DNA of 64,000 nucleotides from Phreatobacter cathodiphilus (lineage in GTDB: Bacteria; Pseudomonadota; Alphaproteobacteria; Rhizobiales; Phreatobacteraceae), in NCBI RefSeq assembly GCF_003008515.1, contig NZ_CP027668.1, forward strand, positions 186,001-250,000, given 5' to 3'. The position numbers were made by a program, and so were the translations under genes. Under the pieces are notes generated by a model. The model saw only the letters and a program-made list of their open reading frames with translations. It searched no databases and had not been told where the DNA came from. Shown here piece after piece: positions 13,641 to 32,651 of this stretch. Numbering within the stretch: position 1 is the first letter of the stretch; each line of letters begins with the position of its first letter.

Positions 13641-14894
13641 ATGTCCGATAGTACGGTGCATCCCGAAGGCGGATCGCAAACGGTCGCCGCGACCGCCCAA
13701 CTCACCGGGATCCTGCGCCGCGTCGCGTCGCTGGGCGACATCCTCGAACGGTCGGTCGGCGATGCCACCCACCCGCTGAAGATCCAGCTCGAGCGTTTCG
13801 ACAGCCCGGTCCATGCCGTCATCGACGGCAGGCCCACCACGCTGTTCGGCACGAACAGCTATCTCGGCCTCAATTTCGATCCGCGCTGCATCGCCGCCGC
13901 GGAGACCGCGCTGAAGACCTGGGGCACCGGCTCCACCGCCTCGCGCGTCGCCAGCGGCAACCAGGCCGGCCATGCCGAGCTCGAGCGCACCATCGCCGCC
14001 TATTACGGCCGCCCGGACGCCATCGTCTTCTCCACCGGCTTCATGGCCAATCTCGGCTCGATCGGGGGCCTGGCCGCCGAAGGCGACCTCATCCTCTACG
14101 ACGCCTTCTGCCATGCCAGCATCATCGATGCCTGCCGGGCGAGCGGCGCCACCTTCAAGTCCTTCCGCCACAACGACCCGGCCGATCTCGACCGGATGCT
14201 GTCGGAGGCGACCGTACCCCCCTCGCGCACCCTCGTCGTGCTCGAAGGGCTCTATTCCGTCTGGGGCGACCTCGGCGCGGTCAAGGACCTCGCCACCGTC
14301 GCCAAGAAGCACGGCGCGCTGGTGCTGGTCGACGAGGCCCACGGCCTCGGCCTCTACGGCCCCACCGGTCGCGGCGTCACCGAGGCCCAGGGCGCCGAGC
14401 ACCTGGTCGATGCCGTCGTCGGCACCTTCTCCAAGTCGGTCGGCGTCATCGGCGGCTATTGCGTCACCAGCCATCCGGCTCTCAAGGCGCTGCGCTTCCT
14501 CGCCCGCTCCTATCTCTACACGGCCTCGCTGCCGCCGGCCGTGGTCGCCTCGGCACGCACCGCCATCGGCATCATCGCCAGCGAGCCGGAGCGGCGCGCC
14601 GATCTCTGGCGCAAGGCCGAGCGCTTCTGCGCCGGCGTCGAGGCTCTCGGCTATTCGATGTGCGCGGCACCCGGTCCGGTCGGCGCCATCAAGATGCGCG
14701 GCCTCGTCCAGGGCCTCGGCTTCTGGCGCGAGCTGCTGGAGCGCGGCATCTACGTCAACATCCTCGTGCCGCCGGCGACCCCGAGCGGCGAGGTGCTGCT
14801 GCGCTACTCGGTCTCGGCCGCCCATACCGACGCCGACATCGACCTGTTCCTCGGCGTGCTGAGCGACCTGTCGCAGATGTCGCAGACCGCCTGA
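13641..14894 (+). CDS. spt: Serine palmitoyltransferase-like alpha-oxoamine synthase (PLP)
   Basis: A 417-residue PLP enzyme of the alpha-oxoamine synthase family (SPT, KBL, BioF). It condenses an acyl thioester with an amino acid; SPT uses serine to give 3-ketosphinganine. The core has NSYLGL, GTGSTASRVASGN, substrate/PLP His158 in CHAS, DEAH at 231-234, and Schiff-base Lys265 in GTFSK. The absence of any other biotin gene, plus adjacent ACP, ketosynthase and ceramide-synthase-like genes, favours SPT over BioF. It converges on the dehydratase/KAS/ACP operon with a 7-bp gap. Cytoplasmic or peripheral at the inner membrane. Confidence 0.82.
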   Translation: MSDSTVHPEGGSQTVAATAQLTGILRRVASLGDILERSVGDATHPLKIQLERFDSPVHAVIDGRPTTLFGTNSYLGLNFDPRCIAAAETALKTWGTGSTASRVASGNQAGHAELERTIAAYYGRPDAIVFSTGFMANLGSIGGLAAEGDLILYDAFCHASIIDACRASGATFKSFRHNDPADLDRMLSEATVPPSRTLVVLEGLYSVWGDLGAVKDLATVAKKHGALVLVDEAHGLGLYGPTGRGVTEAQGAEHLVDAVVGTFSKSVGVIGGYCVTSHPALKALRFLARSYLYTASLPPAVVASARTAIGIIASEPERRADLWRKAERFCAGVEALGYSMCAAPGPVGAIKMRGLVQGLGFWRELLERGIYVNILVPPATPSGEVLLRYSVSAAHTDADIDLFLGVLSDLSQMSQTA

Positions 14895-14901
14895 GGCGGC
14901 C

Positions 14902-15315
14902 TCACAGCAGGACGACGGCCTCCGCCAGCGCCGCCGCCTTGCCGTCCGCTCCCTTGACGAAGATGCGCAGGGTCGCCCGCGGCCGGCCCTCCGCCGTGTC
15001 GGCCCGCACCACGCGCGCCGACACCGTGACCGCCGCGCCCACCGCCACCGGCAGCGCGAAACGGCTCGACAGCTTGGCGCAGGCGCCCTGCGGCAGCCAT
15101 TCGGCGAGCGCCGTGTCGGCGAGGCCCATCAGCAGCATGCCCTGAACGATGGCGCCGGGCAGGCCCACGGCGCGCGCCGCCGCCTCGTCCACGTGGATCG
15201 GATTGTCGTCGCCCGAGGCCGCCGCATAGGCCCGCACCATGGCCATGTCGACGGCGGCGAAATGCCGGTCCGGCAGCACGGTGCCGAAGGGCAGGGGATG
15301 GGCGGCAGCGGTCAC
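14902..15315 (-). CDS. MaoC-like hot-dog dehydratase
   Basis: A 137-residue single hot-dog protein. The hydratase-2 motif is visible as AASGDDNPIHVDEAAARAVG, with the catalytic Asp/His pair, followed by GAIVQGML. It should dehydrate or hydrate a 3-hydroxyacyl thioester. Its start overlaps the end of the second hot-dog gene by 4 bp (ATGA), so they are translationally coupled and may form a heterodimer equal to a double hot-dog dehydratase. It is the last gene of the leftward ACP-KAS-hot-dog-MaoC operon. Confidence 0.8.
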   Translation of the reverse strand: MTAAAHPLPFGTVLPDRHFAAVDMAMVRAYAAASGDDNPIHVDEAAARAVGLPGAIVQGMLLMGLADTALAEWLPQGACAKLSSRFALPVAVGAAVTVSARVVRADTAEGRPRATLRIFVKGADGKAAALAEAVVLL

Positions 15316-15683
15316 GGCACCAGCCTCAGGACGGCGTGGAGGCGCGCCACGGGGGCCCCCGCATCGCTCACCGCGACGTCGAGGGCGAGATGGATCTCGT
15401 CCGTCCTCCGCACCTCGGCCGCGAGCGACAGCTCCCTGTCGAGGGGCAGCGCCGACAGCATCTCCACCGTCTGCAATTCGTGAACGGGGAGCGAGCCCGG
15501 CCGGTCGGCGGCGAGGTCGCGCACGAGATCGACCAGTTCGGGCCGGGTCAGCCAGCGGATCGGATAGGTGGTGGGCTGGCGCGCGCCGGCCGGTGCCCCG
15601 AGGCTGCCGGCGAAGGCCGCCACGTCGGCGGTCGTGGCGACCACCGCGAATGCGGCCTTCCGCGTTCCGCCGACGAGGCTCAC
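15312..15683 (-). CDS. Small hot-dog-like partner protein
   Basis: A 123-residue protein starting at GTG 15683, whose first bases overlap the KAS stop (GTGA). No ATG exists at this end and the frame upstream is inside KAS. The sequence (TYPIRWLTRPELVDLVRD, then LQTVEMLSALPLDRELSLAAEVRR, and DIALDVAVSD-like strands) has the helix-plus-strands rhythm of a degenerate hot-dog fold such as the non-catalytic half of double hot-dog dehydratases, and I see no catalytic Asp/His motif. A structural partner of the adjacent MaoC protein is the simplest reading. Confidence 0.6.
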   Translation of the reverse strand: MSLVGGTRKAAFAVVATTADVAAFAGSLGAPAGARQPTTYPIRWLTRPELVDLVRDLAADRPGSLPVHELQTVEMLSALPLDRELSLAAEVRRTDEIHLALDVAVSDAGAPVARLHAVLRLVP

Positions 15684-16894
15684 GCCGCCCGGCCGATGGC
15701 GAGCGAGGCGTTGATGCCGCCGAAGGCGAAGGAATTGGTCAGCGCCACGTCGAAGGCGTGACTGCGCCCGACATTGGCGACGCAGTCGATGGGGCAGGCC
15801 GGGTCCGCCTCCAGGAAATTGATGGTCGGCGGCACGAAGCCCTCCTCCAGCGCCCGAATGGTGACGACCGCCTCGATGGCACCGGCGGCCCCCAGCGTGT
15901 GGCCGTGGATCGGCTTGGTGGAACTGACCGGCAGGGTGCCGAGCTTCTCGCCGAAGACCCGGCCGAGCGCCTCGCTCTCGGTCGAATCGTTGAGGATCGT
16001 GGCGGTGCCGTGGGCATTCACATAGCCGACCGCTTCCGCGCCGAGGCCCGCATCGGCCAGCGCCAGCGTCATGGCCTCGGCGGCCCCGCCGACGTCCGGC
16101 TTCAGCATGTCCTTGGCGTCGCTCGTGGTGCCGTAGCCGAGGAGGCGGCCGCGGATACGGGCGCCGCGGGCCGCCGCCACCTCCTCCGCCTCGATGACCA
16201 GGGCCGCGGAGCCCTCGCCGAGCAGCAGGCCGTTGCGGCCGCGCGAGAAGGGGCGGCAGAGCTGCGGCGAGAGCACGCGCAGCATTTCCCAGGCCTTCAT
16301 GCCGCCGGGGGTGACGATGGCCTCGGAGCCGACGACGATGGCCCGGTCGGTGAGGCCGGCGCGCACCATGTGGAAGGCGATGCCGAGGGCCTGCGCGGAG
16401 GAGGCGCAGGCGCTCGACACGACGAAGGTCGTGCCGGTGCAGCCATAGACCAGGCCGACATTGGACGCCGAGGCGCTGATCATCGCGCGGGGCACGGTCA
16501 AGGGGTCGGGGCGCTTCTGGGTCAGCGCCATGTTGCGCGAGGATTCCTCGATCGTGCCGAGGCTGGCGATGCCGGTGCCGACGATCACCGAGGTGCGCGG
16601 GCCGAGCGGCAGGGCCTCGGCGAGGCCGGCATCCTTCACCGCCTCGTCGGCGGCGATCAGGGCCATCAGCGTCACCCGGTCGAAGAACGACGTCTTCAGA
16701 TGCGGGAAGAAGCGCTCGAGGTCGAAATCCTGGACCTGAGCGGCGATGCGCAGGTTGTTGCCGAACTCGTAGTCCAGCACGATCTGCTTGACGCCGGACA
16801 CGCCGGTGGCCGCGGCCGTCCACAGGGCTTCGACCCCGTGGCCGGCCGTGGTGAGCGCACCGAGACCGGTGACGACGACGGAGCGGGACGTCAC
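15680..16894 (-). CDS. Beta-ketoacyl-ACP synthase, FabF/KAS II family
   Basis: A 404-residue condensing enzyme that extends an acyl chain with malonyl-ACP. The catalytic triad is intact: Cys163 in SSACASS, His295 in NAHGTAT, and His332 in KPIHGHTLGAAG. The C-terminus has the family NSFAFGG motif. It is coupled to the small hot-dog gene by a GTGA overlap and lies 2 bp after the ACP gene. It is unlikely to be the housekeeping FabF, which normally neighbours fabD/fabG/acpP. The private ACP suggests a specialised chain for the sphingoid base or its N-acyl group, similar in logic to the rhizobial AcpXL set. Confidence 0.88.
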   Translation of the reverse strand: MTSRSVVVTGLGALTTAGHGVEALWTAAATGVSGVKQIVLDYEFGNNLRIAAQVQDFDLERFFPHLKTSFFDRVTLMALIAADEAVKDAGLAEALPLGPRTSVIVGTGIASLGTIEESSRNMALTQKRPDPLTVPRAMISASASNVGLVYGCTGTTFVVSSACASSAQALGIAFHMVRAGLTDRAIVVGSEAIVTPGGMKAWEMLRVLSPQLCRPFSRGRNGLLLGEGSAALVIEAEEVAAARGARIRGRLLGYGTTSDAKDMLKPDVGGAAEAMTLALADAGLGAEAVGYVNAHGTATILNDSTESEALGRVFGEKLGTLPVSSTKPIHGHTLGAAGAIEAVVTIRALEEGFVPPTINFLEADPACPIDCVANVGRSHAFDVALTNSFAFGGINASLAIGRAA

Positions 16895-16896
16895 GA

Positions 16897-17175
16897 TCAG
16901 GCCTGCTGCGCTTTCTGGATATGCTCCTTGAGGACGGCGATGAGGCCGCCGACGTCCTTCACCTGCGCGAGGCTCTCGTCCATCGGCACATAGACCTGGA
17001 ACTTCTCCTCGATGGCGGCGAGGATCATCATGTAGTCGACGCTGGCGATGTTCAGCGATTCGAGCGTCGTATCCGGCCCAACGCCGTTCAGATCGACCAT
17101 GCCTTCCTTCGCGATCACCTCGACGAGGTCGCGCGTCAGCTGGTCGTCCCCGAAAGCGGATGCGGTATCGGTCAT
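16897..17175 (-). CDS. Specialised acyl carrier protein
   Basis: A 92-residue acidic, four-helix carrier. The phosphopantetheine site is Ser45 within LNIASVDYMMI, where housekeeping ACPs have a DSL motif; here the residue before Ser is Ala and Val follows. Downstream IEEKFQVYVP fits ACP helix 2/3. The holo form would present acyl chains to the adjacent ketosynthase and perhaps directly to serine palmitoyltransferase. An AAGAAGG element precedes the ATG. It is the first gene of the operon, divergent from the DUF4833 gene. Confidence 0.85.
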   Translation of the reverse strand: MTDTASAFGDDQLTRDLVEVIAKEGMVDLNGVGPDTTLESLNIASVDYMMILAAIEEKFQVYVPMDESLAQVKDVGGLIAVLKEHIQKAQQA

Positions 17176-17403: not shown

Positions 17404-18012
17404 ATGACCATTTCCCGCCGAGGTCTGATCGCCGCAACCGGCCTCCTCGTGCCGGCGAGCCCGTCCATCGCCCAGGACCGGCTGCCGCCGGTGAGCATCC
17501 GCCGGTCCGAACTGACCGTCTCGCGGTCCCTCGCCGTCGCCCGCCCCGATCTTCCGGTCCCCTCCGACCGCGGCATGCTCTTCTATGTCCAGCACGCCAT
17601 CAACAAGAATGTTCTGGTCTATGCCGCGCGTCAGCGGCCGGACGGTGGCCTCGATCCTCAGGCGCCGGTGGAGGTCTTCTGGCGCCGCTACGACGACGAC
17701 AACGGCCGGCGGCGCGAACTCTCCTTCTTCGAGCGCGTCTTCGCCTTCGGCGTCAGCGCCCGGTCCATCGCCCCGTCCCGCTATTCCGCGCGCATCGCCG
17801 GCTATCGCGAGCGTGATGCGGTGATCGAGGTGGGCTCCGACGGCAAGCCGCGCGCGCTGATGACCTCCGGGCAGCGCACCTTCCGCGTCGTCTATGCCTA
17901 TGCCCAGGCCGAGGACCGCCGCTTCATCCCGAAGATCCACTACATCGACATCCATGGCATCGACGTCGCCAGCGGCGAGGCGGTGCGCGAGCGCGTCCGC
18001 CTCGACATGTAA
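17404..18012 (+). CDS. Exported DUF4833-like protein
   Basis: A 202-residue exported protein. The N-terminus MTISRRGLIAATGLLVPASPSIAQ is a Tat-type signal with cleavage near IAQ-D. The mature part (GMLFYVQHAINKNVLVYAAR, VEVFWRRYDDD, IHYIDIHGID) matches what I recall of DUF4833, whose function is unknown. ATG 17404 is preceded by GAGG, and earlier in-frame starts add only a short basic peptide. It lies between the ACP operon and the GT32/Lpt operon, so a periplasmic part in lipid maturation or transfer is possible by location only. Confidence 0.6.
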   Translation: MTISRRGLIAATGLLVPASPSIAQDRLPPVSIRRSELTVSRSLAVARPDLPVPSDRGMLFYVQHAINKNVLVYAARQRPDGGLDPQAPVEVFWRRYDDDNGRRRELSFFERVFAFGVSARSIAPSRYSARIAGYRERDAVIEVGSDGKPRALMTSGQRTFRVVYAYAQAEDRRFIPKIHYIDIHGIDVASGEAVRERVRLDM

Positions 18013-18018
18013 GGCCCG

Positions 18019-18789
18019 TCAGCGCCCGCCAGCATCCTCCCAGCCGAATTCGTGCCACGGCCCGCGCGGGAAGGGGTTCGGCAGGCGGTTGCGCTCGATG
18101 ATGCGGCGGGACAGGGACGGGCGCTCCGCGCCTTTCCAACTGCCGAGGAAATGGTGACGGCAGAGGATGCGCCGGCCGAGCAGCGGCAGGTCGGCATAGA
18201 GGTCCGGCGGCACCCAGGCGATCTGGTGCAGCACGTCCACACCAGCGGGACGAGTGGCATAGAAGAACCGCGTCAGCGCCTTCGGCCCCGTCGCGTCCTC
18301 GATGTCGCGGCGCTCGGTCACCGGCCGTTCCGACAGGCTGCGGCCCATCTCCTCGGCGAAGGCGGCGAGGAAGGGATGGCCGGCCGGCGCGGCGAAGATG
18401 CAATTGGCGATCTGGAACGGCTGGTCGTAGCCGAGTTCGCGCTGGCGGATGCCGGTCACCTGCGCCTCGATCCCGAAGACGGCCCGATCCCGCCCCAGCA
18501 CCGGGGCGAGCGGCGCCAGGCACTCCATGTCCATGTCGGCGTAGATGCCGCCCTCGGCCAGCACCACGAGGACGCGGAAAAGGTCGGCCTTCTGCACCGG
18601 GAACCTGACGGCCTCGTAGACGGAGGCGAGGTGCGGAAACCGCTCGGCGACGAACCGGTCCATGGCGGCATCGTCGTAGAAGCGCAGGGTGATTGCCGGA
18701 TTGTGGCGCACGAAGCTCTGCTGGAAGGCGGCGAGATCGGCCGGCAGGTCGGCCGATTTCCATGTCTGATGCAGGACGAGAGGGATCAC
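18019..18789 (-). CDS. GT32-type glycosyltransferase (DXD; SUR1/CSG1-like family)
   Basis: A 256-residue transferase. It opens with PLVLHQTWK and carries KADLFRVLVVLAEGGIYADMD, with the DXD metal/nucleotide-sugar site Asp85-Met-Asp87: the signature of the sugar-binding-region-with-DXD family (GT32). That family includes the yeast mannosyltransferases SUR1/CSG1 that add mannose to inositol-phosphorylceramide, but also capsule and LPS enzymes. Start is GTG 18789, overlapping the LptG-like stop (GTGA), so it is translationally coupled to the exporter pair. Placement beside sphingolipid and inositol genes makes a glycosylated inositol-sphingolipid a reasonable product. The sugar donor is unknown. 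Confidence 0.78.
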   Translation of the reverse strand: MIPLVLHQTWKSADLPADLAAFQQSFVRHNPAITLRFYDDAAMDRFVAERFPHLASVYEAVRFPVQKADLFRVLVVLAEGGIYADMDMECLAPLAPVLGRDRAVFGIEAQVTGIRQRELGYDQPFQIANCIFAAPAGHPFLAAFAEEMGRSLSERPVTERRDIEDATGPKALTRFFYATRPAGVDVLHQIAWVPPDLYADLPLLGRRILCRHHFLGSWKGAERPSLSRRIIERNRLPNPFPRGPWHEFGWEDAGGR

Positions 18790-20003
18790 GGAGGCTCCGG
18801 ACGCGACAGGGCGGTGGGCAAGGGGCCGCCTCGCCCCGCCCGCTCGATGCGCGCCATCAGGCCGAGGCCGGTGGCGATCATCGCCAGCGGCATGAACCAC
18901 GCCGCGAACAGGGGATGCAACTGCCCATATTCCCCGAGCCAGACCACCACGTTGTTGGTGACATAGAGGAAATAGCCGGCGAGGCCGATCAGGATCATCG
19001 GCTTGAACTGCGTCCTTTGGGCAAGCAGTGTCATGGACAGTGCCGAGGCCATCAGCATCATGCCGAGCGGCAGCACCGCCTGGGCGATGCGGACGTGCCA
19101 CCAGGCGCGGTAAGAGGGCTCGTTCAGGCCCTCGAGGCTCGCCAGCGCCGACAGGGTGGATTGCGGCAAGTAGCGCGCGTCGATGCCGAGATTGGCGAGC
19201 CAGAGCGGCTCCAGCGGCATTGCGATCCGTTCCTCGGCGAATCGCCGCGTCGCGCCCGTGCCGGTCGCCTGGGTCGGCGCGTCGCCCGCCGGCGCCGTCC
19301 AGCGGATGCCGTCCCGGAAGATCCAGGTCCCTGCCGTCTCGCCCGGCGAGGCGCTGGCGGCGGCCACCCGCCCGGTCAGGCGCCCGCCCTCCGACAGTTC
19401 GAAGAGCTGCACGTCGACGAGCGTCCGGTTGCGGAAGTCGATCCGCGCCTGGACCATGTGGTCGGCGAGCACGATCCAGCGCCGCTCGTCCGGCTTCAGC
19501 CGCCGGTCGAAGCGCTCGCCGTAGCTGCCGAGGCGGCTGTCGATCTGCACGGCGACGGCGGCCGGCCGCAGCACCGAGAGCGCGGTCACCTGCAGCGCCC
19601 CGAAAAGGGCCCCGAGGACGAAGAGCGGCATCAGCGACTGCAGCGGCGAGCGCCCGCCGTTCCAGATCACGATGCGCTCGCGCGACTGGGTCAGCGTGAT
19701 TTCCGACCAGAACAGCCCCATGAAACAGGCCAGCGGCAGAAGGTTGCCGATGACGTCGCAGATGCGCAGCAGCAGGTACCAGCCCATCAGCAGGGCGACG
19801 CCCGCCGCGCCGCCGCTCGCCTGCGCCACGACCCGGTCGGCGCGTGAGGCGAGGTCCAGCGTCAGGGCGACGATGAGGAGCGCCGCGGCCACGGTTCCCA
19901 CATGGCTCGCATGGGCGAGGGTGAGCGTGCGCGTGAAGGTGCCGAAGGGCACCAGGCCGAAGCGGCGGCCGGTTTCGGGGGCGGGGGTGGGAAGCGCCGT
20001 CAC
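18786..20003 (-). CDS. lptG: LptG-type permease of an LPS-export-like ABC transporter
   Basis: A 405-residue YjgP/YjgQ-family inner-membrane protein: two N-terminal helices, a periplasmic beta-jellyroll region (about residues 120-260) and three or four C-terminal helices (MILIGLAGYFLYVTNNVVVWLGE). In the canonical machine LptF and LptG extract LPS for the periplasmic bridge. It starts at GTG 20003 overlapping the LptF-like stop, and ends overlapping the GT32 start. Canonical lptFG usually precede lptD/surA; here they sit among sphingolipid genes, so this may be a dedicated paralog. If the genome has only one lptFG pair, it is the housekeeping set. Confidence 0.82.
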   Translation of the reverse strand: MTALPTPAPETGRRFGLVPFGTFTRTLTLAHASHVGTVAAALLIVALTLDLASRADRVVAQASGGAAGVALLMGWYLLLRICDVIGNLLPLACFMGLFWSEITLTQSRERIVIWNGGRSPLQSLMPLFVLGALFGALQVTALSVLRPAAVAVQIDSRLGSYGERFDRRLKPDERRWIVLADHMVQARIDFRNRTLVDVQLFELSEGGRLTGRVAAASASPGETAGTWIFRDGIRWTAPAGDAPTQATGTGATRRFAEERIAMPLEPLWLANLGIDARYLPQSTLSALASLEGLNEPSYRAWWHVRIAQAVLPLGMMLMASALSMTLLAQRTQFKPMILIGLAGYFLYVTNNVVVWLGEYGQLHPLFAAWFMPLAMIATGLGLMARIERAGRGGPLPTALSRPEPP

Positions 20004-21214
20004 GAGCGGCTGAGTCCCGGTCGCGCGATGGCCGACGAGCGCAGCGCCACGGCGATGACGAGGCCGACGCCGATGGTGAGACCGCCCGCGGCCACCAGCG
20101 ACAGCACCGGCCACAGACCCGCCGGCAGGACGCCCGCCAGCACCGAGGTGCCGGCGATCTCCATGGTCATCAGGCCGGCGCAGGCGAGCGGCAGGACGAA
20201 GGCCTGGTTGGCCCGCGTCGTGAACGACAGCGCCAGCAGCGCGATCAGCGGCGCGATGAGGCAGAGAAGGCTCCGCCCGATGCGCTTGGCCAGTTCCAGC
20301 CTCTCGCCCGTGCGCGTGAAGGCGCCGGTGAGGAGTTCGGGCAGGGTCAGTTCGGCGATGTTCCGCCCGCGCGGGTCGAAGGGCACGATGTCGTTGAACA
20401 CGAGGCTCTGCTGGGTGGAGGTGCCGCGCAGGGAGGAGGTTGGCGCCACCGGCCATTGCTGCGGGCCGCTGGCGCCCGCCGGCGGTGCGGGGAAGTCGTC
20501 CACGGCGAAGTCGTAGAGATGGAGCGCCACGCGCCCGTCGAGGTCGGGGCCCACCAGGCGGGTGCCGTTGGCGACCACGATCCGCTCGCCGCCGCCCTCC
20601 GTCGGCTGGCGCACGAAGAGGCGCGGGGTGGGCACGCCGTCGGAGCGCGGCATCACCGACACCGTGCCGATCCGCGTCTCGAACAGCCGGTTGGCGGTGA
20701 CCGTTCCCCCGGTCAGGGCGTGGTACTGGGAGGAGAACATCACCAGCCGGAAGGCGTAGCGCGCCAGCGGATCGACGAAGCCGCCCACCGCCAGGGCGGC
20801 GATCTGCGCCCAGATGCCGATGCGGATGACCAGCCGGATGAGCCCGTGCGGCGGAATGCCGAGGCTCGACAGCATGAGGAACTCGCGGTCCTCCCTGAGG
20901 CCGAGCGAGACGCGATAGACGGCGATGAGGATGGCCGTGGGCAGCGCCAGCTCGAAGACCTGCGGCAGCATGGTGGCCATCATGGCGATGGTCTTGGCGA
21001 GCGGGGCGCGGATCTTCAGCACCTCCTCGAGCAGGCCGGAAATGAGCTGCTCGGCGACGAAGATGCTCTCGATCAGCAGCAGCACCAGCGCCACCTGCAC
21101 GGTGACGTCGCGCATGATCCGGTGCGCCTGCTGGCTCGGGAAGCGGCGCGCCCGGCCGCCGAGGTCGAGCTGCGAGACCAGCCGCCGCTTCAGCGCGAAG
21201 AGGCTTCTCACCAC
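20000..21214 (-). CDS. lptF: LptF-type permease of an LPS-export-like ABC transporter
   Basis: A 404-residue YjgP/YjgQ-family permease partner of the following LptG. Near the N-terminus is VALVLLLIESIFVAEQL, then a coupling helix region SLGLREDREFLMLSSLGIPP (the motif that meets the ATPase), a periplasmic domain, and C-terminal helices including LIAPLIALLALSFT. I start at GTG 21214 (VVRSLFALKRR) because the 50 residues upstream are low-complexity basic sequence; GTG 21211 is also possible. It is divergent from the ceramide-synthase-like gene with about 100 bp between, so a shared regulatory region is likely. The LptB-type ATPase at 23186 would complete the transporter. Confidence 0.82.
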   Translation of the reverse strand: MVRSLFALKRRLVSQLDLGGRARRFPSQQAHRIMRDVTVQVALVLLLIESIFVAEQLISGLLEEVLKIRAPLAKTIAMMATMLPQVFELALPTAILIAVYRVSLGLREDREFLMLSSLGIPPHGLIRLVIRIGIWAQIAALAVGGFVDPLARYAFRLVMFSSQYHALTGGTVTANRLFETRIGTVSVMPRSDGVPTPRLFVRQPTEGGGERIVVANGTRLVGPDLDGRVALHLYDFAVDDFPAPPAGASGPQQWPVAPTSSLRGTSTQQSLVFNDIVPFDPRGRNIAELTLPELLTGAFTRTGERLELAKRIGRSLLCLIAPLIALLALSFTTRANQAFVLPLACAGLMTMEIAGTSVLAGVLPAGLWPVLSLVAAGGLTIGVGLVIAVALRSSAIARPGLSRS

Positions 21215-22954: not shown

Positions 22955-22958
22955 GCGG

Positions 22959-23185: not shown

Positions 23186-23902
<717 letters not shown>

Positions 23903-26124: not shown

Positions 26125-27234
26125 TTGAAGATCGCACTCGTGAGCGACTGGTTCGTGCCGCGACTCGGCGGCATCGAGCTGCAGATGCGCGATCTCGCCC
26201 TGGCGCTGCGCGAGCGCGGCCACGAGGTCCGGGTGATCTGCGGTGTCCCCGGCGAGGCGCAGGTGGACGGCATCCCCGTCGAGCGCCTGCCCGGGCCGCG
26301 CCTGCCCGGTTTCGGCATCGCCTTCACGCCGGCGGTCTTCGCGGCGCTCAGGGCCGCCATCGACGCCGGTGGCGAGGAGGTCGTCCACGTCCATTGCGGC
26401 AACGTGGCGCCCATCGCCCACCACGCCGTGCAGCACTGCATCCGCAGGCGCATCCCGGCGGTCGCCACCTTCCACTCGGTGCTGAAATATTACGACCTGC
26501 CGCTCATGGCGCTGAACGCCCTGCACGGCTACGGCCGCTCCGCCGTCCGCTTCACCGCGGTCTCGACCGTCGCCGGCGCGGCGCTGCGTCCGCTGCTCGG
26601 CGACAGGGCCGTGACCGCCGTTCCCAACGGCATCGACCTTTCATGGTGGCGCCGCCCGGACGGCCTCGCGCCGCGGGGCGACGGGCCGGTCGAGTTCGTC
26701 TCGGTGACGCGGCTGCAGAAGCGCAAGCGGGCGCGCTGGCTGGTCAAGGCCTTCGCCGCGGCGGTGCAGCGCCTGCCGCCGGGGGCGGCGCGCCTGACCA
26801 TCGTCGGCGACGGCGACGAGCGGGCCGCCATCGCCGCCATCATCCGCCGCGCCGGCATGGAGGACCGGATCGTCCTCGCCGGACGGGAGACGCGTGAGGC
26901 GATCCGTGCACGGCTGCACGGCGCCGACGTCTTCCTGCTGGCCTCGAAGCTCGAGGCCTTCGGCATCGCCGCCCTCGAGGCGCGCGCCGCCGGCCTGCCC
27001 GTCGTCACCATGGCCCAATCGGGGGCGCGCGATTTCCTGCACGACGGCGAGGACGCCATCCTCGCGGCGGACGACGCCGAACTCGCCGCCGCCATCCGCC
27101 GGCTGGCCGAGGAGCCTGGCCTGCGCCGGAGGCTTGCCGCCGCCGCGGCCCTGCCGCCGGACGGCGTCGACTGGCGCGCGGTGGCGCCGCTCTACGAGGC
27201 GGAATATCAGGCGGCGCGGGCGGCGCTGGCCTAG
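26125..27234 (+). CDS. Glycosyltransferase family 4 protein (GT-B)
   Basis: A 369-residue retaining GT4 enzyme: N-terminal domain beginning KIALVSDWFVPRLGGIELQMRDLALAL (the GGxE acceptor/phosphate loop), then C-terminal donor domain with VSVTRLQKRKRA and ASKLEAFGIAALEARAAGLPVV, containing the EX7E pattern. Such enzymes include PimA-type mannosyltransferases acting on phosphatidylinositol, so sugar addition to an inositol lipid on the cytoplasmic face fits the context. It starts at TTG 26125 (GAGAG upstream) and its stop overlaps the convergent flippase-like stop. Donor and acceptor are not determinable from sequence. Confidence 0.85.
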   Translation: MKIALVSDWFVPRLGGIELQMRDLALALRERGHEVRVICGVPGEAQVDGIPVERLPGPRLPGFGIAFTPAVFAALRAAIDAGGEEVVHVHCGNVAPIAHHAVQHCIRRRIPAVATFHSVLKYYDLPLMALNALHGYGRSAVRFTAVSTVAGAALRPLLGDRAVTAVPNGIDLSWWRRPDGLAPRGDGPVEFVSVTRLQKRKRARWLVKAFAAAVQRLPPGAARLTIVGDGDERAAIAAIIRRAGMEDRIVLAGRETREAIRARLHGADVFLLASKLEAFGIAALEARAAGLPVVTMAQSGARDFLHDGEDAILAADDAELAAAIRRLAEEPGLRRRLAAAAALPPDGVDWRAVAPLYEAEYQAARAALA

Positions 27235-28229
27235 GGCTCGTCGAGCCGGCGCTGGCCCTTGTCGTCCTGCGGCAGCGCCCAGCCGAGATAGCCGAGACTC
27301 ACCAGCGAGGCGACGAAGAGCACGCCGTGATGGATCAGCGCCGCGGCGGTGGCGAGCGGCAGCGGCACGCCGAGATACTGGTAGCAGAGGATGACGGTCG
27401 CCTCGAACACGCCGAGATGGCCGGGCGAGACCGGCGCCATGGTGGCGAGGTCGAGGGCCGCCACCACCAGCACCGCCGCGGCGACGGAGGGCTCGATGCC
27501 CACCGCCACCTGCACGGTCATCACCATCAGCACCTCGGCCGCGGTCTTGGCGAAGGTCAGCAGCACCACGGCGCTGCCCAGGACCGGATTGCGAAGCGGT
27601 TCGAGATGATCGACGAAATCGGCGACGTGGCCGAGGAGCCGGGCCGGGCGCGGCGACAGGCCGATGCCGAGGCGGCGCAGCCGGTTGCCGCCATGGGCGG
27701 CGACGAGCAGGGCGACCGTCACCAGCGCCATGACGCCGGCGAGCGCGAGGAGGCCGGAGCGGATCCAGTCCGGCACGGGCACGAGCAGGGCGGCCAGCGA
27801 CAGCGTCGCCACCTTGCCGATGCCGGTGACGAGCTGGTCCACCGTATAGAGCGAGGCGGCGGCGGAGGCCGGCAGCCGCCCGCGCACGATGAGGAAGCCG
27901 ACCGAGGCGACGACGCCGGTCATCGGCAGGGAGGTGTTGGCCGCCCCGCTCAGCGCCGTCACCTGCGCCATCCGGGCGAAGCTCGGCCGGTGCGCCTTCG
28001 GCGCCAGCAGCTGCCATTGCAGGATCCAGAAGGGCCAGCCCGCCAGCGAGACGAAGACGGCGAGCACCGCCCAGTGCCACTTGGCGCCCGCCAGGGCGGC
28101 GATGACGTCCGCCCAGGGCAGGGCATAGGCGGCGATGCCGGTGAACAGGGCCAGCACGCACCAGCCGAGAATCCACCATAGGCGGCGTGAGGGCGGCGCG
28201 GCCGCGTCCGTGGCGGCGGGCACGCTCAT
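27231..28229 (-). CDS. Flippase-like membrane protein (LPG_synthase_TM / UPF0104 family)
   Basis: A 332-residue protein with about eight helices. Motifs such as LSGAANTSLPMTGVVASVGFLI, LYTVDQLVTGIGKV and the C-terminal MAPVSPGHLGVFEA are those of the lysylphosphatidylglycerol-synthase-TM/AglD family, members of which flip lipids or lipid-linked sugars. It overlaps the polysaccharide-deacetylase gene by 4 bp (ATGA) and is thus co-translated. In this locus it could move the sphingolipid or its glycosyl donor across the inner membrane. No soluble synthetase domain is attached. Confidence 0.8.
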   Translation of the reverse strand: MSVPAATDAAAPPSRRLWWILGWCVLALFTGIAAYALPWADVIAALAGAKWHWAVLAVFVSLAGWPFWILQWQLLAPKAHRPSFARMAQVTALSGAANTSLPMTGVVASVGFLIVRGRLPASAAASLYTVDQLVTGIGKVATLSLAALLVPVPDWIRSGLLALAGVMALVTVALLVAAHGGNRLRRLGIGLSPRPARLLGHVADFVDHLEPLRNPVLGSAVVLLTFAKTAAEVLMVMTVQVAVGIEPSVAAAVLVVAALDLATMAPVSPGHLGVFEATVILCYQYLGVPLPLATAAALIHHGVLFVASLVSLGYLGWALPQDDKGQRRLDEP

Positions 28230-28966
28230 GCCGCGGTCCCCTTCACCTGGGCGCCCAGGTCCCGCATGGTCATGAAGGTCGCCCCGCGCCCCTTGAAATA
28301 GCCGATCACCGAGGCGAGGGCGTCCAGCGCCGGCTGTCCGGTGCGGAAGCGGCAGTCGTAGCGCAGGGTCGACTGGCGGAAGTCGACGAACTCCCAGGGG
28401 TGGACGAAGAGCACCACGGGGTCGGGCAGCCGGCCGAGGAAATACTCCCGCAGCAGTTTGGGGATGCGCAGGGCGCTGGAGGTGATGGAGGCGGGGATGC
28501 GCACGAGGCCCGGCGCGTTCTCCTCGCCCGGCACGTCCTTCTTGTAGCGCGCCTGCGAGGAATCGAGGGCGAAACCCTCGTCCTGGAGCAGGTCGAGATA
28601 ATGGCCGGGAAAGCGCAGATAGGGCGCGCGGAACGAGGTGATCTCGCCGAAGTCGCGCAGCCGCCGGGTCGAATCCTGAATCTCCCAGCGGGCGCTGTCC
28701 TTCGACATCCAGTCGAAGCGCTGGTGGGTGACGCCGTGGCAGGCGAGTTCGTGGCCGCCGTCGACCACCGCCGTGACCGCGGCCGGATGCAGCCGTGCCG
28801 TCTCGCCGGTGGTGAACCAGGTGACCGGCACCTCTTCGCGCGCGAAGAGGTCGAGGAGGCGCGGCGCGCCTTCCGTCACCCCCCGCCATGTCCAAAGGAA
28901 CGGCGGGCAGTCCGGTTCCATGTCGACGGTGAGCGCGACGCGCAGGGGCGGGAGAGGAGCGGGCAT
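28226..28966 (-). CDS. Polysaccharide deacetylase (NodB/CE4) family protein
   Basis: A 246-residue protein with the CE4 start VALTVDMEPDCPPFLW, a metal-site HxxxH-like segment GHELACHGVTHQRFDWM, and SFRAPYLRFPG. Members remove N-acetyl groups from amino sugars; related proteins of this size with LPG_TM partners act on lipid-linked aminosugars such as undecaprenyl-phosphate-formamido-arabinose (ArnD). No signal peptide is obvious. Coupled to the flippase-like gene, it suggests that a deacetylated amino sugar may decorate the lipid. The acceptor is unknown. Confidence 0.8.
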   Translation of the reverse strand: MPAPLPPLRVALTVDMEPDCPPFLWTWRGVTEGAPRLLDLFAREEVPVTWFTTGETARLHPAAVTAVVDGGHELACHGVTHQRFDWMSKDSARWEIQDSTRRLRDFGEITSFRAPYLRFPGHYLDLLQDEGFALDSSQARYKKDVPGEENAPGLVRIPASITSSALRIPKLLREYFLGRLPDPVVLFVHPWEFVDFRQSTLRYDCRFRTGQPALDALASVIGYFKGRGATFMTMRDLGAQVKGTAA

Positions 28967-29077
28967 GGCCGCGCTCTTAGAGCATTTCGCAGGCGAGGGG
29001 GAGAGGCCCTCGCCTGCACGACGGCCGGCCGGGTCTACGACGGCCGGCCGACGTTGTCCGACGGCGGGCCTGCCGCC

Positions 29078-29788: not shown

Positions 29789-29920
29789 GGGGCGGTCTCC
29801 GGCTGGGGGGCGCTGGACGGGCCGCCGGGGCTGTCCGGGGTGATGTCCTGCACGTGACGGCCGCCATGGTCGAGCAGACCGACCGCCATTTCCAGTCGTT
29901 TGACGCCTGCAGGTCCGGCG

Positions 29921-29955
29921 AATGCTTGGAAACGTGAACGTCGTTTCAACGCATT
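29921..29955. repeat. Imperfect inverted repeat upstream of the carbonic anhydrase gene
   Basis: Two 14-base arms (AATGCTTGGAAACG and CGTTTCAACGCATT) pair at 12 of 14 positions around a 7-base loop. It lies about 130 bp upstream of the carbonic anhydrase start and 120 bp after the glycosyltransferase stop, in a 288-bp gap (29789-30076) that is AT-richer than its surroundings and holds no gene. It could be a terminator stem for the glycosyltransferase or a regulator site. Confidence 0.35.
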
Positions 29956-30076
29956 TGCAGGATCATCCGGAGAATTCGCTGAAAATGCCCTCGCGATGCG
30001 GAGGTATATTGCGCGGATGGGCCGGAGGGCCGCGCGGCAGGGCACGGGATGTGTGGAAGATCTTGCCGTTACGTCT

Positions 30077-30913
30077 CTACCACCAGTCCCGGAAGGCGGC
30101 GATGGCATTGAGGTCGTTGGTGCCGGAACTGTTCGGGCCGAAGGTGAGGGCGGCGAGGTTCGATGCTTCCGTCTCGATCGGCAGGCCGCGCCCGGGGATG
30201 ACGAGGCGTGGCACGCCGCGTTTCGCCAGATGCCCGGCGAACCACACGTCATCGACGAAGCGGATGCCGGGCGCATGGCCGGAGAAGTCGTGCACCGCCG
30301 CATCGAAGGCGCCGGGCGGCACCAGATAGCCCCAGGTGCCCAGGAGGATGTCCACAGGCTCCGGCGCGGCGAGGGCGGTGGCGAAGACGTGGGGGAAGCG
30401 CTTGGGATGGGCGCCCGGCACGATGCGCCAGCCGCGCCAGCCGATGGCGGCACCCGGCAGGCGGCGATGCCAGGCGAGCATCTGTTCGAGGAAGTCGGAG
30501 GGATAGATGACGTCGTCGTCGACGACGATGATCGCCGCCGCGGGCTCGGCCAGGAGCGCCGGCAGCAACTTGGTGGCCGGCCCCTCGTCGGTGGTATCGA
30601 GCACGTCGACACCGGGAAAGGGCGGGTCGAGCTGCGGATAGGGCTGGCCCGAACGCCGGGACACCTGCGGGCGGGCGAGGATGATGCGGTCGGCCGCCAC
30701 CGTCTGGTCGAGGAGGCTGCGGAACACCGGCGCGAGCCTGTCCATGCGCTCGGGGACGGTCGTCAGCGTCACCACGAGCCGTTCCGGCCGGGCCGGCGAC
30801 GGGGGCCGCGGCGGCGGTAGCTCGCGCATCAATTTGCGTGCCCGGGCATGATCCTGATAGAGCCTAGCCGGCGTCATGCGCCGGAAGCGCATCAGCGCGT
30901 TGCGGATCATCAT
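30077..30913 (-). CDS. Glycosyltransferase-like GT-A protein
   Basis: A 278-residue protein with RLVVTLTTVPERMDRLAPVFRSLLDQT near the N-terminus and the acidic metal site IIVVDDDVIYPSDFLEQML, the layout of GT-A transferases; RFVDDVWFAGHLAKRG supplies a second acidic site. It has no close family I can name with certainty. It begins at ATG 30913 (MMIRNALMRF); an ATG at 31000 is in frame but would crowd the divergent gene. It is divergent from the CDP-alcohol phosphotransferase gene, so the two may share a regulatory region. Likely sugar addition in the same lipid pathway; the sugar is unknown. Confidence 0.7.
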   Translation of the reverse strand: MMIRNALMRFRRMTPARLYQDHARARKLMRELPPPRPPSPARPERLVVTLTTVPERMDRLAPVFRSLLDQTVAADRIILARPQVSRRSGQPYPQLDPPFPGVDVLDTTDEGPATKLLPALLAEPAAAIIVVDDDVIYPSDFLEQMLAWHRRLPGAAIGWRGWRIVPGAHPKRFPHVFATALAAPEPVDILLGTWGYLVPPGAFDAAVHDFSGHAPGIRFVDDVWFAGHLAKRGVPRLVIPGRGLPIETEASNLAALTFGPNSSGTNDLNAIAAFRDWW

Positions 30914-31023
30914 GGCCGGCAGGCCGGGGCGGTCCGGAAAGTGGGGCGCATCTCGGCCTCGGCTCCTTATCGGGGTGAGGACGGGCTCATAGCACCGCAC
31001 GCGGCAAACGGGGAGCCGGGTTG

Positions 31024-31722
31024 ATGTCGGAAAGCTGGGTCTCGCGGCTTCTCGCGAGCCTTGAACGGGGCGCCTCCCTCCAGGATGTCGCCCGCAGTGC
31101 GTCCTTCGCGGGCACTCTGGCGAAGGTGGCCTCCGTGCTGGCGCGCACGGGCGTCACGCCCAACACGCTGACGCTGCTGTCGCTGTTGCCGGCCCTCGTC
31201 TCCGGCATCCTCGCCGCCTATGGCGCCTTCGGCTGGTCGACGCTGTTCCTGCTGCTCTCCGGCGTCTTCGACATGCTGGACGGCCCGCTCGCGCGCTCCA
31301 CCGGCACGGTCAGCCGCTACGGCGCCCTGCTCGATTCGACCGTCGACCGCATCACCGACGCCTCCCCGCTCCTCGGCCTCACCGTCTTCTACGCCACCTC
31401 CGGCTGGATGGCGGTGGTGCCGGCCTTCACCCTGCTCGCCGCCTATACGGTGTCCTACGTGCGGGCGCGCTGCGAGGGCCTGAAGGTGCAACTGCCGCCG
31501 CTGTGGATGCGCCGCGGCGACCGCATGGTGCTGATCGCGCTCTCGCTGCTGCTCGGCATGGTCTCGCCGGCATTCACGCTCGGCGGCATAGGCCTCGTCG
31601 GCGTGCTCAGCCTCCTCGCCGCGGCCGATGCACTCCGCGTCGCCCGCAACGTCATCGACGCCCGGGTGCCGGAGGTGCGCGCCGTTGCGGACGCCCCGAC
31701 CGGCCGCGACACCGCCGCCTGA
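31024..31722 (+). CDS. CDP-alcohol phosphatidyltransferase (candidate PI-phosphate synthase)
   Basis: A 232-residue membrane enzyme with about six helices. The complete family motif D-x2-DG-x2-AR-x8-G-x3-D-x3-D is present: Asp83, Asp86, Gly87, Ala90, Arg91, Gly100, Asp104, Asp108. It transfers a phosphatidyl group from CDP-diacylglycerol to an alcohol. With inositol-phosphate synthase in the locus and the AUR1-like gene 8 bp downstream, inositol-phosphate is the best acceptor guess; glycerol-phosphate is the alternative. ATG 31024 with GGGGAG nine bases upstream is preferred to TTG 31021. Confidence 0.83.
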   Translation: MSESWVSRLLASLERGASLQDVARSASFAGTLAKVASVLARTGVTPNTLTLLSLLPALVSGILAAYGAFGWSTLFLLLSGVFDMLDGPLARSTGTVSRYGALLDSTVDRITDASPLLGLTVFYATSGWMAVVPAFTLLAAYTVSYVRARCEGLKVQLPPLWMRRGDRMVLIALSLLLGMVSPAFTLGGIGLVGVLSLLAAADALRVARNVIDARVPEVRAVADAPTGRDTAA

Positions 31723-31730
31723 GACCTGAC

Positions 31731-32651
31731 ATGATCGACACCGCCTTGAGCCGCCTGACGGACCTGTGGGGCCGCTGGTGGCTGGCGCCGCTGGCGCCGA
31801 CCTTCTACGCCCTCGCCATGATCCCCGCCGGGCAGTTCCGGCCCGAACATGCGCTGATCGGCGGCCTGGTGCTGGTTCTCGGCCTGTACAACCGCACCAC
31901 CCAGCGCATCACCGCCGCGCTCTATCCCGGCGTGCTCGTGGCCATCGCCTCCGACGCCATGCGCTTCGTCGTTCCGGTCTTCGTCACGCCGGAGCGGGTC
32001 CATGCCTGCGACCTGCGCGCCCTCGAGCTGAAGCTTTTCGCCGTCGCGCCGAACGTCACGCCCGGCGACTGGCTGCAGCAGCACACGGCGCCCTTCTGGG
32101 ACGTCTTCTTCGCCGTTCCCTATGCCGCCTTCCTCTATGTCGTGCCGGTCTATGCGCTCTATCTCTTCGTCCGCGACCGGGAGCGCATGGCCCTCTATCT
32201 CTGGGCCTTCGCCATCGCCCATGCCATCGGCTTCGCCATGTGGCTGATCGTGCCGGCGGCGCCGCCCTGGTACGTGCGCATGAACGGCTGCCTCGTCGAC
32301 GTGAAGGCGGCCGCCAATGCCGCCGGCCTGCTGCGCGTCGACGACCTCTTCGGCATGACCTATTTCCGCCAGTTCTACGCCCGCGCCGCCAATGCCTTCG
32401 GCGCCATGCCCTCGATGCACGTCGCCTTCCCGCTGATCGGCCTCTTCGCCGCCCTCGGCCGCGCCACCTGGCGCACCTGGCCGCTGCATCTGACCTACGC
32501 CACGGCCATGTTCGTCGGCAGCGTCTATCTCGACCACCATTGGATCCTCGACGGCGTCGCCGGCGCCGTCGTGGCGCTCGCCGCCGTGTGGATCGCGGCG
32601 CGGCTTCTCGGCCTGCCCTGGCCCTGGCCGCCGCGCGAAGGCCGGCCGTGA
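31731..32651 (+). CDS. PAP2-superfamily lipid transferase resembling inositol-phosphorylceramide synthase (AUR1-like)
   Basis: A 306-residue inner-membrane protein with about six or seven helices. The active-site blocks of the PAP2_3/AUR1 group are clear: VPAAPPWY (residues 174-181), ANAFGAMPSMHVAFP with His230, and DHHWILDGVAG with His270 and Asp274. AUR1 moves phosphoinositol from phosphatidylinositol to ceramide. The gene follows the candidate phosphatidylinositol-phosphate synthase by 8 bp and ends in a strong terminator. Plain phosphatase activity cannot be excluded from sequence. Confidence 0.8.
   Translation: MIDTALSRLTDLWGRWWLAPLAPTFYALAMIPAGQFRPEHALIGGLVLVLGLYNRTTQRITAALYPGVLVAIASDAMRFVVPVFVTPERVHACDLRALELKLFAVAPNVTPGDWLQQHTAPFWDVFFAVPYAAFLYVVPVYALYLFVRDRERMALYLWAFAIAHAIGFAMWLIVPAAPPWYVRMNGCLVDVKAAANAAGLLRVDDLFGMTYFRQFYARAANAFGAMPSMHVAFPLIGLFAALGRATWRTWPLHLTYATAMFVGSVYLDHHWILDGVAGAVVALAAVWIAARLLGLPWPWPPREGRP

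What the first reader, a model, noticed from the sequence alone, without database searches (positions are those of the whole stretch)
13641..32651. Candidate inositol-phosphorylceramide (IPC/MIPC-like) biosynthesis and export locus in an alphaproteobacterium
Seen: SPT (13641), ACP/KAS/hot-dog set (14902-17175), GT32 (18019), LptG/LptF-like (18786-21214), ceramide-synthase-like GNAT (21312), PgpA-like (22445), LptB-like (23186), inositol-phosphate synthase (23955), CerR-like (25123), GT4 (26125), flippase-like (27231), CE4 deacetylase (28226), GT-A (30077), CDP-alcohol phosphotransferase (31024), AUR1-like PAP2 (31731). Known: bacterial ceramide synthesis uses SPT, CerS and CerR; fungi make IPC with Ino1, PI synthase and AUR1, and SUR1/CSG1 of GT32 mannosylate it; Bacteroides has an inositol-lipid cluster with MIPS, CDP-alcohol phosphotransferase, PgpA-like and PAP2 genes (recalled). 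Inferred: this block makes an inositol-phosphate-headed, probably glycosylated sphingolipid and sends it to the outer membrane. I know of no description of the whole set in this lineage.
Basis: partly seen in the sequence, partly recalled or inferred. Interest (0 to 1): 0.93.

Follow-up and report, generated by a model that had tools for sequence, protein, structure and literature searches.

The report
Bacterial inositol-sphingolipid synthesis and export locus
One conserved 20-kb stretch of an alphaproteobacterium (Phreatobacter) looks like a nearly complete kit to make a sugar-decorated inositol sphingolipid, a lipid type best known from plants and fungi, together with its own transporter toward the cell surface.

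Summary
The host is a Phreatobacter. The block carries SPT, CerS-like GNAT, reductases, ACP/KAS/dehydratase, MIPS, PIP-synthase-like transferase, PgpA, AUR1-type PAP2, four sugar-related genes, a flippase-like protein and a second LptB/F/G set. It starts further left (12603, KdsR-like reductase) and includes an unlisted DUF4833 gene (17404-18012). Twenty genes are colinear in 12 of 12 genus genomes, one copy split by about 34 kb. In sampled genomes strong PAP2 matches are confined to the genus: 12 of 397 in the order, 1 of 385 in the class. Four alphaproteobacterial MAG loci outside the genus carry rearranged versions. In the class sample DUF4833 passes its cut-off in two genomes; the other one has it between SPT and MIPS, followed by LptF, LptG and GT4. 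Best reading: PI is made via PIP, PAP2 moves phosphoinositol to ceramide, sugars are added, and the second Lpt set exports the lipid beside LPS. No product has been shown. Bacteroides and Caulobacter each have half of this in print: a new variant of a known kind. Aminosugar head, DUF4833 and a DES-like desaturase are new leads.

The parts
12603..13421 (+). SDR, 3-ketodihydrosphingosine-reductase-like (KdsR); left end of the block
   Evidence: best NCBIfam NF049977 1.8e-72, below cut-off; beside SPT in 12 of 12 genus genomes and in L036
13641..14894 (+). serine palmitoyltransferase-like alpha-oxoamine synthase
   Evidence: NF047599 3.4e-140, 467 bits against a cut-off of 500; TFSK motif
14902..15315 (-). 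MaoC/HadB-like dehydratase
   Evidence: Pfam MaoC 3.2e-19; HadA/HadB models, below cut-off
15312..15683 (-). small unassigned protein, perhaps a second hot-dog subunit
   Evidence: no Pfam hit; in 11 of 11 other genus copies
15680..16894 (-). FabF-like ketoacyl-ACP synthase
   Evidence: TIGR03150 4.1e-113, below cut-off
16897..17175 (-). acyl carrier protein of the block
   Evidence: PP-binding 1.7e-5, over cut-off; Ser45 invariant in 14 rows
17404..18012 (+). DUF4833 protein; signal-like N-terminus by eye only
   Evidence: Pfam PF16117 5e-25; all-beta model, no PDB match at E<=0.001; hydropathy scan found no strong segment
18019..18789 (-). GT32 glycosyltransferase (start approximate)
   Evidence: Pfam 4.7e-10; identity varies between species
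18786..19940 (-). LptG-like permease, second copy (start approximate)
   Evidence: PF03739 6.7e-34; TIGR04408 5.2e-35, below cut-off; four LptF/G genes in 11 of 12 genus genomes
20000..21214 (-). LptF-like permease, second copy
   Evidence: PF03739 1.7e-13; TIGR04407 5.9e-19, below cut-off
21312..22448 (+). ceramide-synthase-like tandem GNAT
   Evidence: no family hit; model pLDDT 85.5, tandem GNAT folds at 7.2e-12
22445..22954 (+). PgpA-family phosphatase, candidate PIP phosphatase; the only PgpA found in the genome
   Evidence: Pfam 1.1e-33; one per genome in 12 of 12
23186..23902 (-). second LptB ATPase
   Evidence: TIGR04406 326.8 bits over cut-off 240; other LptB, 62% identical, at 3.84 Mb beside LptA- and LptC-type genes
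23955..25034 (-). myo-inositol-phosphate synthase (start approximate)
   Evidence: TIGR03450 4.9e-164, below cut-off; structure 1gr0 6.8e-144; one match in the genome
25123..26088 (+). NAD-epimerase-family protein, CerR-like
   Evidence: Pfam Epimerase 1.1e-23; best NCBIfam HpnA 1.1e-41, below cut-off
26125..27234 (+). GT4 glycosyltransferase, BshA/PimA-like
   Evidence: Pfam 1e-27; PDB BshA-type 2.4e-17, PimA 5.3e-17
27231..28229 (-). LPG_synthase_TM flippase-like membrane protein
   Evidence: PF03706 2.3e-28
28226..28966 (-). CE4 polysaccharide-deacetylase-family enzyme, overlaps the flippase gene by 4 bases
   Evidence: PF01522 1.5e-17; D15, H77, H81, R113, H189 invariant in 15 rows; overlap
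30077..30910 (-). GT-A-like glycosyltransferase
   Evidence: PF00535 3.7e-4, below cut-off; in 4 of 4 other alphaproteobacterial loci
31021..31722 (+). CDP-alcohol phosphotransferase, PIP-synthase-like
   Evidence: DxxDGxxAR-x8-GxxxDxxxD; structures named CDP-DAG--inositol 3-phosphatidyltransferase 1.5e-14 and PIPS fusion 1.4e-11; NCBIfam cut-offs not reached
31731..32651 (+). AUR1-type PAP2 enzyme, candidate inositol-phosphoceramide synthase
   Evidence: PF14378 6.6e-21; NF052609 8e-40, below cut-off; AUR1 structures 8.9e-20 by profile

Best explanation
The block makes an inositol-phosphoceramide-based, glycosylated sphingolipid and delivers it to the outer membrane. Ceramide arm: KAS, dehydratase and ACP supply an acyl-ACP; SPT condenses it with serine; the CerS-like GNAT adds the second chain; the KdsR-like SDR and/or the CerR-like protein reduce the ketone. 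Head arm: MIPS makes inositol phosphate, the PIP synthase joins it to CDP-DAG, PgpA removes the phosphate to give PI, and the AUR1-type enzyme moves phosphoinositol from PI to ceramide. Decoration: GT4 and CE4 (probably adding and de-N-acetylating an amino sugar), the flippase-like protein and GT-A, with a species-variable GT32. Export: LptB/F/G of the block extract the lipid, beside the separate LPS set; one LptD per genome suggests a shared outer-membrane translocon. Shown: gene families, conservation, motifs, copy numbers. Inferred: every reaction, the sugar, the order of steps and the route.
For: Families and folds. AUR1 profile match 8.9e-20 across the catalytic half. PIP synthase motif invariant in 17 rows; H230, H270, D274 of PAP2 in 16 rows. 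20 genes colinear in 12 of 12 genus genomes. Rearranged sets in 4 alphaproteobacterial MAG loci outside the genus (two of them, L038 and L039, close kin): PIPS, MIPS, CerS, KAS and GT-A in 4 of 4; SPT, GT4, CE4 in 3 of 4; flippase in 3 of 4 by tblastn and in L040 by Pfam. L040 also has LptB/F/G. In the Bacteroidota-plus-others group SPT and CerS lie within the fetched flanks in 18 and 17 of 40 loci. LPS is kept: LpxC in 11 of 12; four LptF/G in 11 of 12, two in G001. One LptD in 12 of 12. Bacteroides precedent by knockouts (PMC9246714 passages); Caulobacter second LptC/F/G (PMC11324152 passages).
Against: No lipid, enzyme or transport assay. NCBIfam equivalog cut-offs are mostly not reached (SPT 467 of 500; MIPS 546 of 638; PIPS 96 of 170, with an archaeal inositol-phosphate-lipid synthase model scoring higher, 121 of 180; IPC synthase 137 of 480). 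PgpA is the only copy in the genome, so it may serve phosphatidylglycerol; it was found in 2 of 4 other alphaproteobacterial loci. CerR-like protein and GT32 were found in 0 of 4 of these, LptF/G and DUF4833 in 1 of 4. No second LptC or acyl-ACP synthetase among the block's genes. GT-A is below Pfam's cut-off. CerS-like GNATs also occur in 12 of 49 sampled genomes of the order outside the genus, so this protein alone is not specific.
Confidence: 0.78

Rival explanations
1. Two products from one locus: a sphingolipid with another head, and a separate phosphoinositol diacylglycerol or capsule lipid; the PAP2 enzyme acts on another acceptor or as a phosphatase.
For: PAP2_3 proteins are functionally broad (recalled). 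In 33 Myxococcota/delta loci PIPS is near PAP2 in 27, but SPT, CerS and MIPS in 0 within the fetched flanks, many of them cut by contig ends. Loss of MIPS changed capsule gene expression in Bacteroides (PMC9246714 passages).
Against: The PAP2 sequence matches AUR1 and the phosphoinositol dihydroceramide synthase model and no other NCBIfam family at E<=0.001. Ceramide (CerS, KAS) and inositol (MIPS, PIPS, PAP2) genes lie together in 4 of 4 other alphaproteobacterial loci.
Confidence: 0.13
2. The inositol phosphate is a glycan acceptor for a soluble pseudodisaccharide (mycothiol-like): GT4 adds GlcNAc to inositol phosphate and CE4 deacetylates it; the sphingolipid is separate.
For: MIPS fits the actinobacterial mycothiol INO1 model; GT4 also matches MshA weakly (1.2e-16) and BshA.
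Against: CE4 is not the LmbE-type deacetylase of that pathway (recalled); the membrane partners PIPS and PAP2 stay linked to MIPS in 4 of 4 other loci.
Confidence: 0.05
3. The second LptB/F/G set carries LPS variants or another lipid, not the sphingolipid (this can hold together with the best explanation of synthesis).
For: Only synteny ties it to the lipid; L036, L038 and L039 show no LptF or LptG in the fetched flanks.
Against: LptF and LptG lie in one run with SPT in G082, and LptB/F/G lie beside PAP2 in L040, where SPT is not in view; second LptC/F/G in the Caulobacter cluster (PMC11324152 passages); a complete-looking LPS set exists elsewhere in the genome.
Confidence: 0.2

Closest known systems
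Bacteroides thetaiotaomicron inositol-lipid cluster BT_1522-BT_1526 (PMC9246714, passages read)
   Same: AUR1-like synthase, PIP synthase with DX2DGX2AR...GX3DX3D, PgpA-family PIP phosphatase and MIPS; a lysylphosphatidylglycerol-synthase-type gene nearby; in other Bacteroidota-group loci also SPT (18 of 40), CerS (17 of 40) and DUF4833 (24 of 40) near PAP2
   Different: B. thetaiotaomicron SPT is BT_0870, away from the cluster; GT4, CE4, GT-A, KAS, ACP, LptF and LptG were found in 0 of 40 Bacteroidota-group loci; PAP2 and PIPS fall in a different clade
Caulobacter crescentus CC_1168-CC_1152 phosphosphingolipid cluster (PMC11324152, passages read)
   Same: SPT, CerS, CerR, ACP, second LptF/LptG, flippase
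   Different: Caulobacter head is phosphoglycerate and the cluster has AasR and a second LptC; here inositol enzymes, KAS/dehydratase and an extra LptB. Sequence orthology to the Caulobacter proteins was not tested
Fungal AUR1 / plant GIPC pathway (recalled)
   Same: AUR1-related enzyme; predicted inositol-phosphate-headed, glycosylated ceramide
   Different: bacterial GNAT CerS and PIP route; other sugar enzymes; Lpt-type export

Membership tests
Inositol-phosphoceramide synthase (AUR1 / BT_1522 type) | PAP2_3 domain related to AUR1 over the catalytic half | tested here: met
   PF14378 6.6e-21; profile vs AUR1 structures 8.9e-20, positions 110-283
Inositol-phosphoceramide synthase (AUR1 / BT_1522 type) | catalytic His/His/Asp positions aligned with AUR1 | tested here: met
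   GAMPSMH and DHHWILD align to AUR1; invariant in 16 rows; that these residues are catalytic is recalled
Inositol-phosphoceramide synthase (AUR1 / BT_1522 type) | NCBIfam NF052609 equivalog cut-off (480 bits) | tested here: not met
   137 bits: related, not filed as this equivalog
Inositol-phosphoceramide synthase (AUR1 / BT_1522 type) | transfers phosphoinositol from PI to ceramide | not testable with these tools
   needs an enzyme assay
Bacterial PIP synthase | CDP-alcohol transferase motif and similarity to solved PIP synthases | tested here: met
   motif, invariant in 17 rows; PDB hits
Bacterial PIP synthase | NCBIfam equivalog cut-off (NF045883, 170 bits) | tested here: not met
   95.7 bits; archaetidylinositol phosphate synthase model scores higher, 120.7 of 180
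Bacteroides-type inositol-lipid cluster | MIPS, PIPS-like, PgpA-type and AUR1-type genes in one locus | tested here: met
Caulobacter-type sphingolipid cluster | SPT-like, GNAT CerS-like, ACP, second LptF/LptG genes together | tested here: met
   orthology to Caulobacter proteins not tested
Caulobacter-type sphingolipid cluster | acyl-ACP synthetase AasR and LptC2 | tested here: inconclusive
   none among the genes of the block scanned; rest of the genome not searched
Fungal MIPC synthase (GT32 SUR1/CSG1) | GT32 with DXD and orthology to SUR1 | tested here: inconclusive
   Pfam Gly_transf_sug 4.7e-10; Och1 at 3.7e-4 is the best PDB hit; orthology and sugar not tested

The most novel reading that the evidence does not exclude
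These bacteria make a true counterpart of plant and fungal glycosyl-inositol-phosphoceramides with a glucosamine-type sugar on the inositol. The sugar is added to PI by GT4 and deacetylated by CE4 in the cytoplasm, the glyco-PI is flipped, the AUR1-type enzyme moves the finished head en bloc to ceramide in the periplasmic leaflet, DUF4833 (a new all-beta, probably periplasmic protein) chaperones or hands over the inositol lipid, and a dedicated LptB/F/G carries it out. A DES-like desaturase modifies the sphingoid base.
Probability: 0.25. Interest if true: 0.83.

Novelty: new variant of a known kind. Interest (0 to 1): 0.6.

Why it matters
It would put a nearly complete inositol-sphingolipid pathway, including head-group sugars and a private transporter, in one locus of an LPS-making alphaproteobacterium. 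Two open questions become testable by gene deletion: how bacterial sphingolipids cross the envelope (stated as not known in PMC11324152, passage), and what DUF4833 does. No paper in the library searched holds the word DUF4833; here it is linked to inositol-lipid genes in Bacteroidota and Alphaproteobacteria.

Tried and rejected
Carbonic anhydrase at 29078 as a part: rejected, found in 1 of 11 other genus copies. DUF4833 as an LptC/LptA-type protein: no support; Foldseek gave no PDB match at E<=0.001 (1211 matches at E<=10, 50 shown). LPS replaced by the sphingolipid: rejected, LpxC in 11 of 12 genomes and the LPS Lpt set present; the genome without an LpxC match is 85% complete. PgpA as a clearly spare copy: rejected, it is the only one. 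Plasmid origin: tblastn matched 6 of 72,556 plasmid records, none covering 80% of the query. The careful PAP2 tree did not finish and the quick tree is used (88 rows; L027-L029 left out as duplicates, L024 dropped by the filter for stops or coverage). The first PIPS tree failed; one search used 28 rows (28 chosen loci, L035 dropped by the same filter, plus the window). Literature: the listings showed no paper on this locus, on Phreatobacter sphingolipids or on DUF4833; several lists were capped (one search matched 20,964 papers, 10 seen), and only open-licence PMC papers are held. Not done: a search for AasR or a second LptC in the rest of the genome; comparison with the Caulobacter proteins themselves.


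Full report
WHERE IT IS. The window is bases 186001-250000 of a one-contig 4,494,445-base genome. Named contigs matching genus genomes in length and position (for example L027 and G002:C11, both 121,531 bases) are titled Phreatobacter sp.. All 11 nearest genomes share its genus, and Phreatobacter was described as the sole genus of its family (PMC7179689 passages). So the host is a Phreatobacter, order Hyphomicrobiales; the name is inferred from relatives.

CHECK OF THE GENES. Pfam and NCBIfam confirm SPT, MaoC dehydratase, FabF-type KAS, ACP, GT32, LptG, LptF, PgpA, LptB, MIPS, an epimerase-type (CerR-like) protein, GT4, LPG_synthase_TM, CE4, CDP-alcohol transferase and PAP2_3. GT-A has only a sub-threshold GT2 hit. 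The CerS-like protein matches no family but its model (pLDDT 85.5) is a tandem GNAT (222 PDB hits at E<=0.001, best 7.2e-12). NCBIfam equivalog cut-offs are mostly not reached; LptB's is (327 against 240 bits). Added here: the KdsR-like SDR at 12603, DUF4833 at 17404, and a small unassigned protein at 15312-15683.

A CONSERVED UNIT. I traced 20 genes in the 11 other genomes of the genus held. All 20 are found, in the same order and strands, in 11 of 11 (G008 in two pieces; the ends of three copies, where I read the order from the coordinates). In G003 only the end of the SDR lies in the fetched stretch, and in G001 the best KAS and GT4 pieces are partial. In G008 the block is split between PgpA and LptB by about 34 kb. 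The carbonic anhydrase occurs in 1 of 11 of these copies.

DISTRIBUTION. With a PAP2 profile, strong matches (E<=1e-149) occur in 12 of 397 genomes sampled from the order, all in the genus; 14 more have weak matches (E>=1.3e-10). In 385 genomes sampled from the class, the own genome is strong and 5 are weak. I sorted these by record title into Phreatobacter (3), other Alphaproteobacteria (4), Myxococcota/delta (33) and Bacteroidota plus others (40). PIPS lies within 5 kb of PAP2 in 61 of the 65 loci that have it, of 80, many cut by contig ends.

FOUR OTHER ALPHAPROTEOBACTERIAL LOCI. L036 (Hyphomicrobiales MAG), L038 and L039 (Rhizobiales MAGs, close kin of each other) and L040 (Rhodobacteraceae MAG) carry rearranged versions at about 28-65% identity: PIPS, MIPS, CerS, KAS and GT-A in 4 of 4; SPT, GT4 and CE4 in 3 of 4; flippase in 3 by tblastn and in L040 by Pfam; PgpA in 2; ACP and MaoC by tblastn in 2 (L038's ACP by Pfam); SDR, LptB/F/G and DUF4833 in 1 each; GT32 and CerR in 0. 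This ties GT4, CE4, flippase and GT-A to the inositol-sphingolipid genes. They lie outside the genus as far as titles and contig lengths tell. In L030, L032, L038 and L039 PgpA lies between PIPS and PAP2 on the other strand, which favours a PIP phosphatase role; L036 and L040 show none.

BACTEROIDOTA GROUP. Of 40 loci, PIPS is near PAP2 in 31, PgpA in 27, DUF4833 in 24, SPT in 18, CerS in 17 and MIPS in 4; GT4, CE4, flippase (by this query), GT-A, KAS, ACP, MaoC, LptF and LptG in 0. So clustering of the ceramide and inositol arms is not special to Phreatobacter; the sugar, acyl-supply and Lpt genes are.

DUF4833. In 23 of those 24 loci it lies between PIPS and PAP2 (the other, L104, shows no PIPS). 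In the class sample it passes the cut-off in 2 of 385 genomes, the own one and G082; a third match is below it. In G082 it lies in the run SPT-DUF4833-MIPS-SDR-CdsA-type-LptF-LptG-GT4, followed by a sugar kinase and a CDP-alcohol transferase. L040 has it too. Its model is all-beta (pLDDT 85.4) with no PDB match at E<=0.001. No paper in the library holds its name. I infer a periplasmic role in handling the inositol lipid; the signal peptide is judged by eye.

ACTIVE SITES. PIPS motif residues are invariant in 17 rows, PAP2 H230/H270/D274 in 16, CE4 D15/H77/H81/R113/H189 in 15 (rows are those found by tblastn among 17 loci plus the window, some partial, which shortens lists such as KAS). GT4 keeps 14 invariant positions over 16 rows, so its sugar cannot be read.

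EXPORT. Eleven of 12 genus genomes hold four LptF/LptG genes: a canonical pair, in the own genome beside LptD, and the divergent pair of the block; G001 (89% complete) shows only the block's two. The other LptB, 62% identical, lies beside LptA- and LptC-type genes. LptD is single in 12 of 12. LpxC is in 11 of 12. So LPS and a second inner-membrane Lpt set coexist. Caulobacter has second LptC/F/G genes in its sphingolipid cluster, with transport not studied there (PMC11324152 passages), so a second Lpt set is not itself new.

ORIGIN. In quick trees (SH-aLRT only) alphaproteobacterial PAP2 (89) and PIPS (95) each form one group near some Myxococcota and apart from Bacteroidota. Support is moderate and long branches are flagged. 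Ceramide phosphoinositol is reported from Myxococcus xanthus (cited in PMC9246714, passage).

MECHANISM. See the best explanation. In Caulobacter, SPT and CerS are cytoplasmic and CerR periplasmic (PMC11087976, abstract and outline). PMC9386255 states that SPT co-occurs with a specialised ACP and acyl-ACP synthetase in Rhodobacteria (listing and passages); this block has an ACP with KAS and dehydratase, and the rest of the genome was not searched for the synthetase.

SPHINGOID BASE. Nine of 12 genus genomes hold a Lipid_DES (sphingolipid desaturase) domain over cut-off; three, all rated 100% complete, show none. The own gene lies outside the block and also has FA_desaturase; L038 carries such a gene between PAP2 and MIPS. 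This suggests desaturated or hydroxylated bases in some species. Against it: NCBIfam gives only carotenoid and guanitoxin enzyme models, below cut-off, and there is no PDB match at 0.001.

VERDICT. A real, conserved locus; core function likely; the combination is new within a known kind. The glycosylated, aminosugar head and the DUF4833 role are the bold part.

Noticed in passing
window 17404-18012: DUF4833 gene, also between PIPS and PAP2 in 23 of 40 Bacteroidota-group loci and in an SPT-MIPS-LptFG run of an alphaproteobacterium (L135:9753-10385).
   Followed up: partly
L178:4296-5288 (own genome C1:2694795-2695787, minus strand); L038:10294-11253: Bacterial desaturase with the Lipid_DES sphingolipid desaturase domain; 9 of 12 genus genomes, and inside the locus of L038.
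   Followed up: partly
window 18019-18789: GT32 identity drops to 47-54% in some species whose neighbouring genes are mostly more alike, and differs between close relatives (L019 47%, L026 71%): possibly a swapped, serotype-like gene.
   Followed up: no
L017, L136, L137 (G008): About 34 kb of other DNA splits the block between PgpA and LptB.
   Followed up: partly
L135:8497-18869 (G082): A different inositol-sphingolipid-like run with its own CdsA-type cytidylyltransferase, sugar kinase and CDP-alcohol transferase; no PAP2 match in the stretch taken.
   Followed up: partly
L030-L035, L041, L043-L045, L047, L048, L051-L056, L058, L059: PIPS+PAP2 pairs in Myxococcota without SPT, CerS or MIPS in the fetched flanks.
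   Followed up: partly
genomes G003, G006, G008: One or two extra CerS-like GNAT genes besides the block's.
   Followed up: no
window 29078-29788: Carbonic anhydrase with a weak Tat-signal match (below cut-off) sits inside the block only here and in G001 among the genus copies.
   Followed up: no
window 32708-34924: Trypsin-like peptidase with a long N-terminal part next to PAP2; a match also follows PAP2 in L027 and L028.
   Followed up: no
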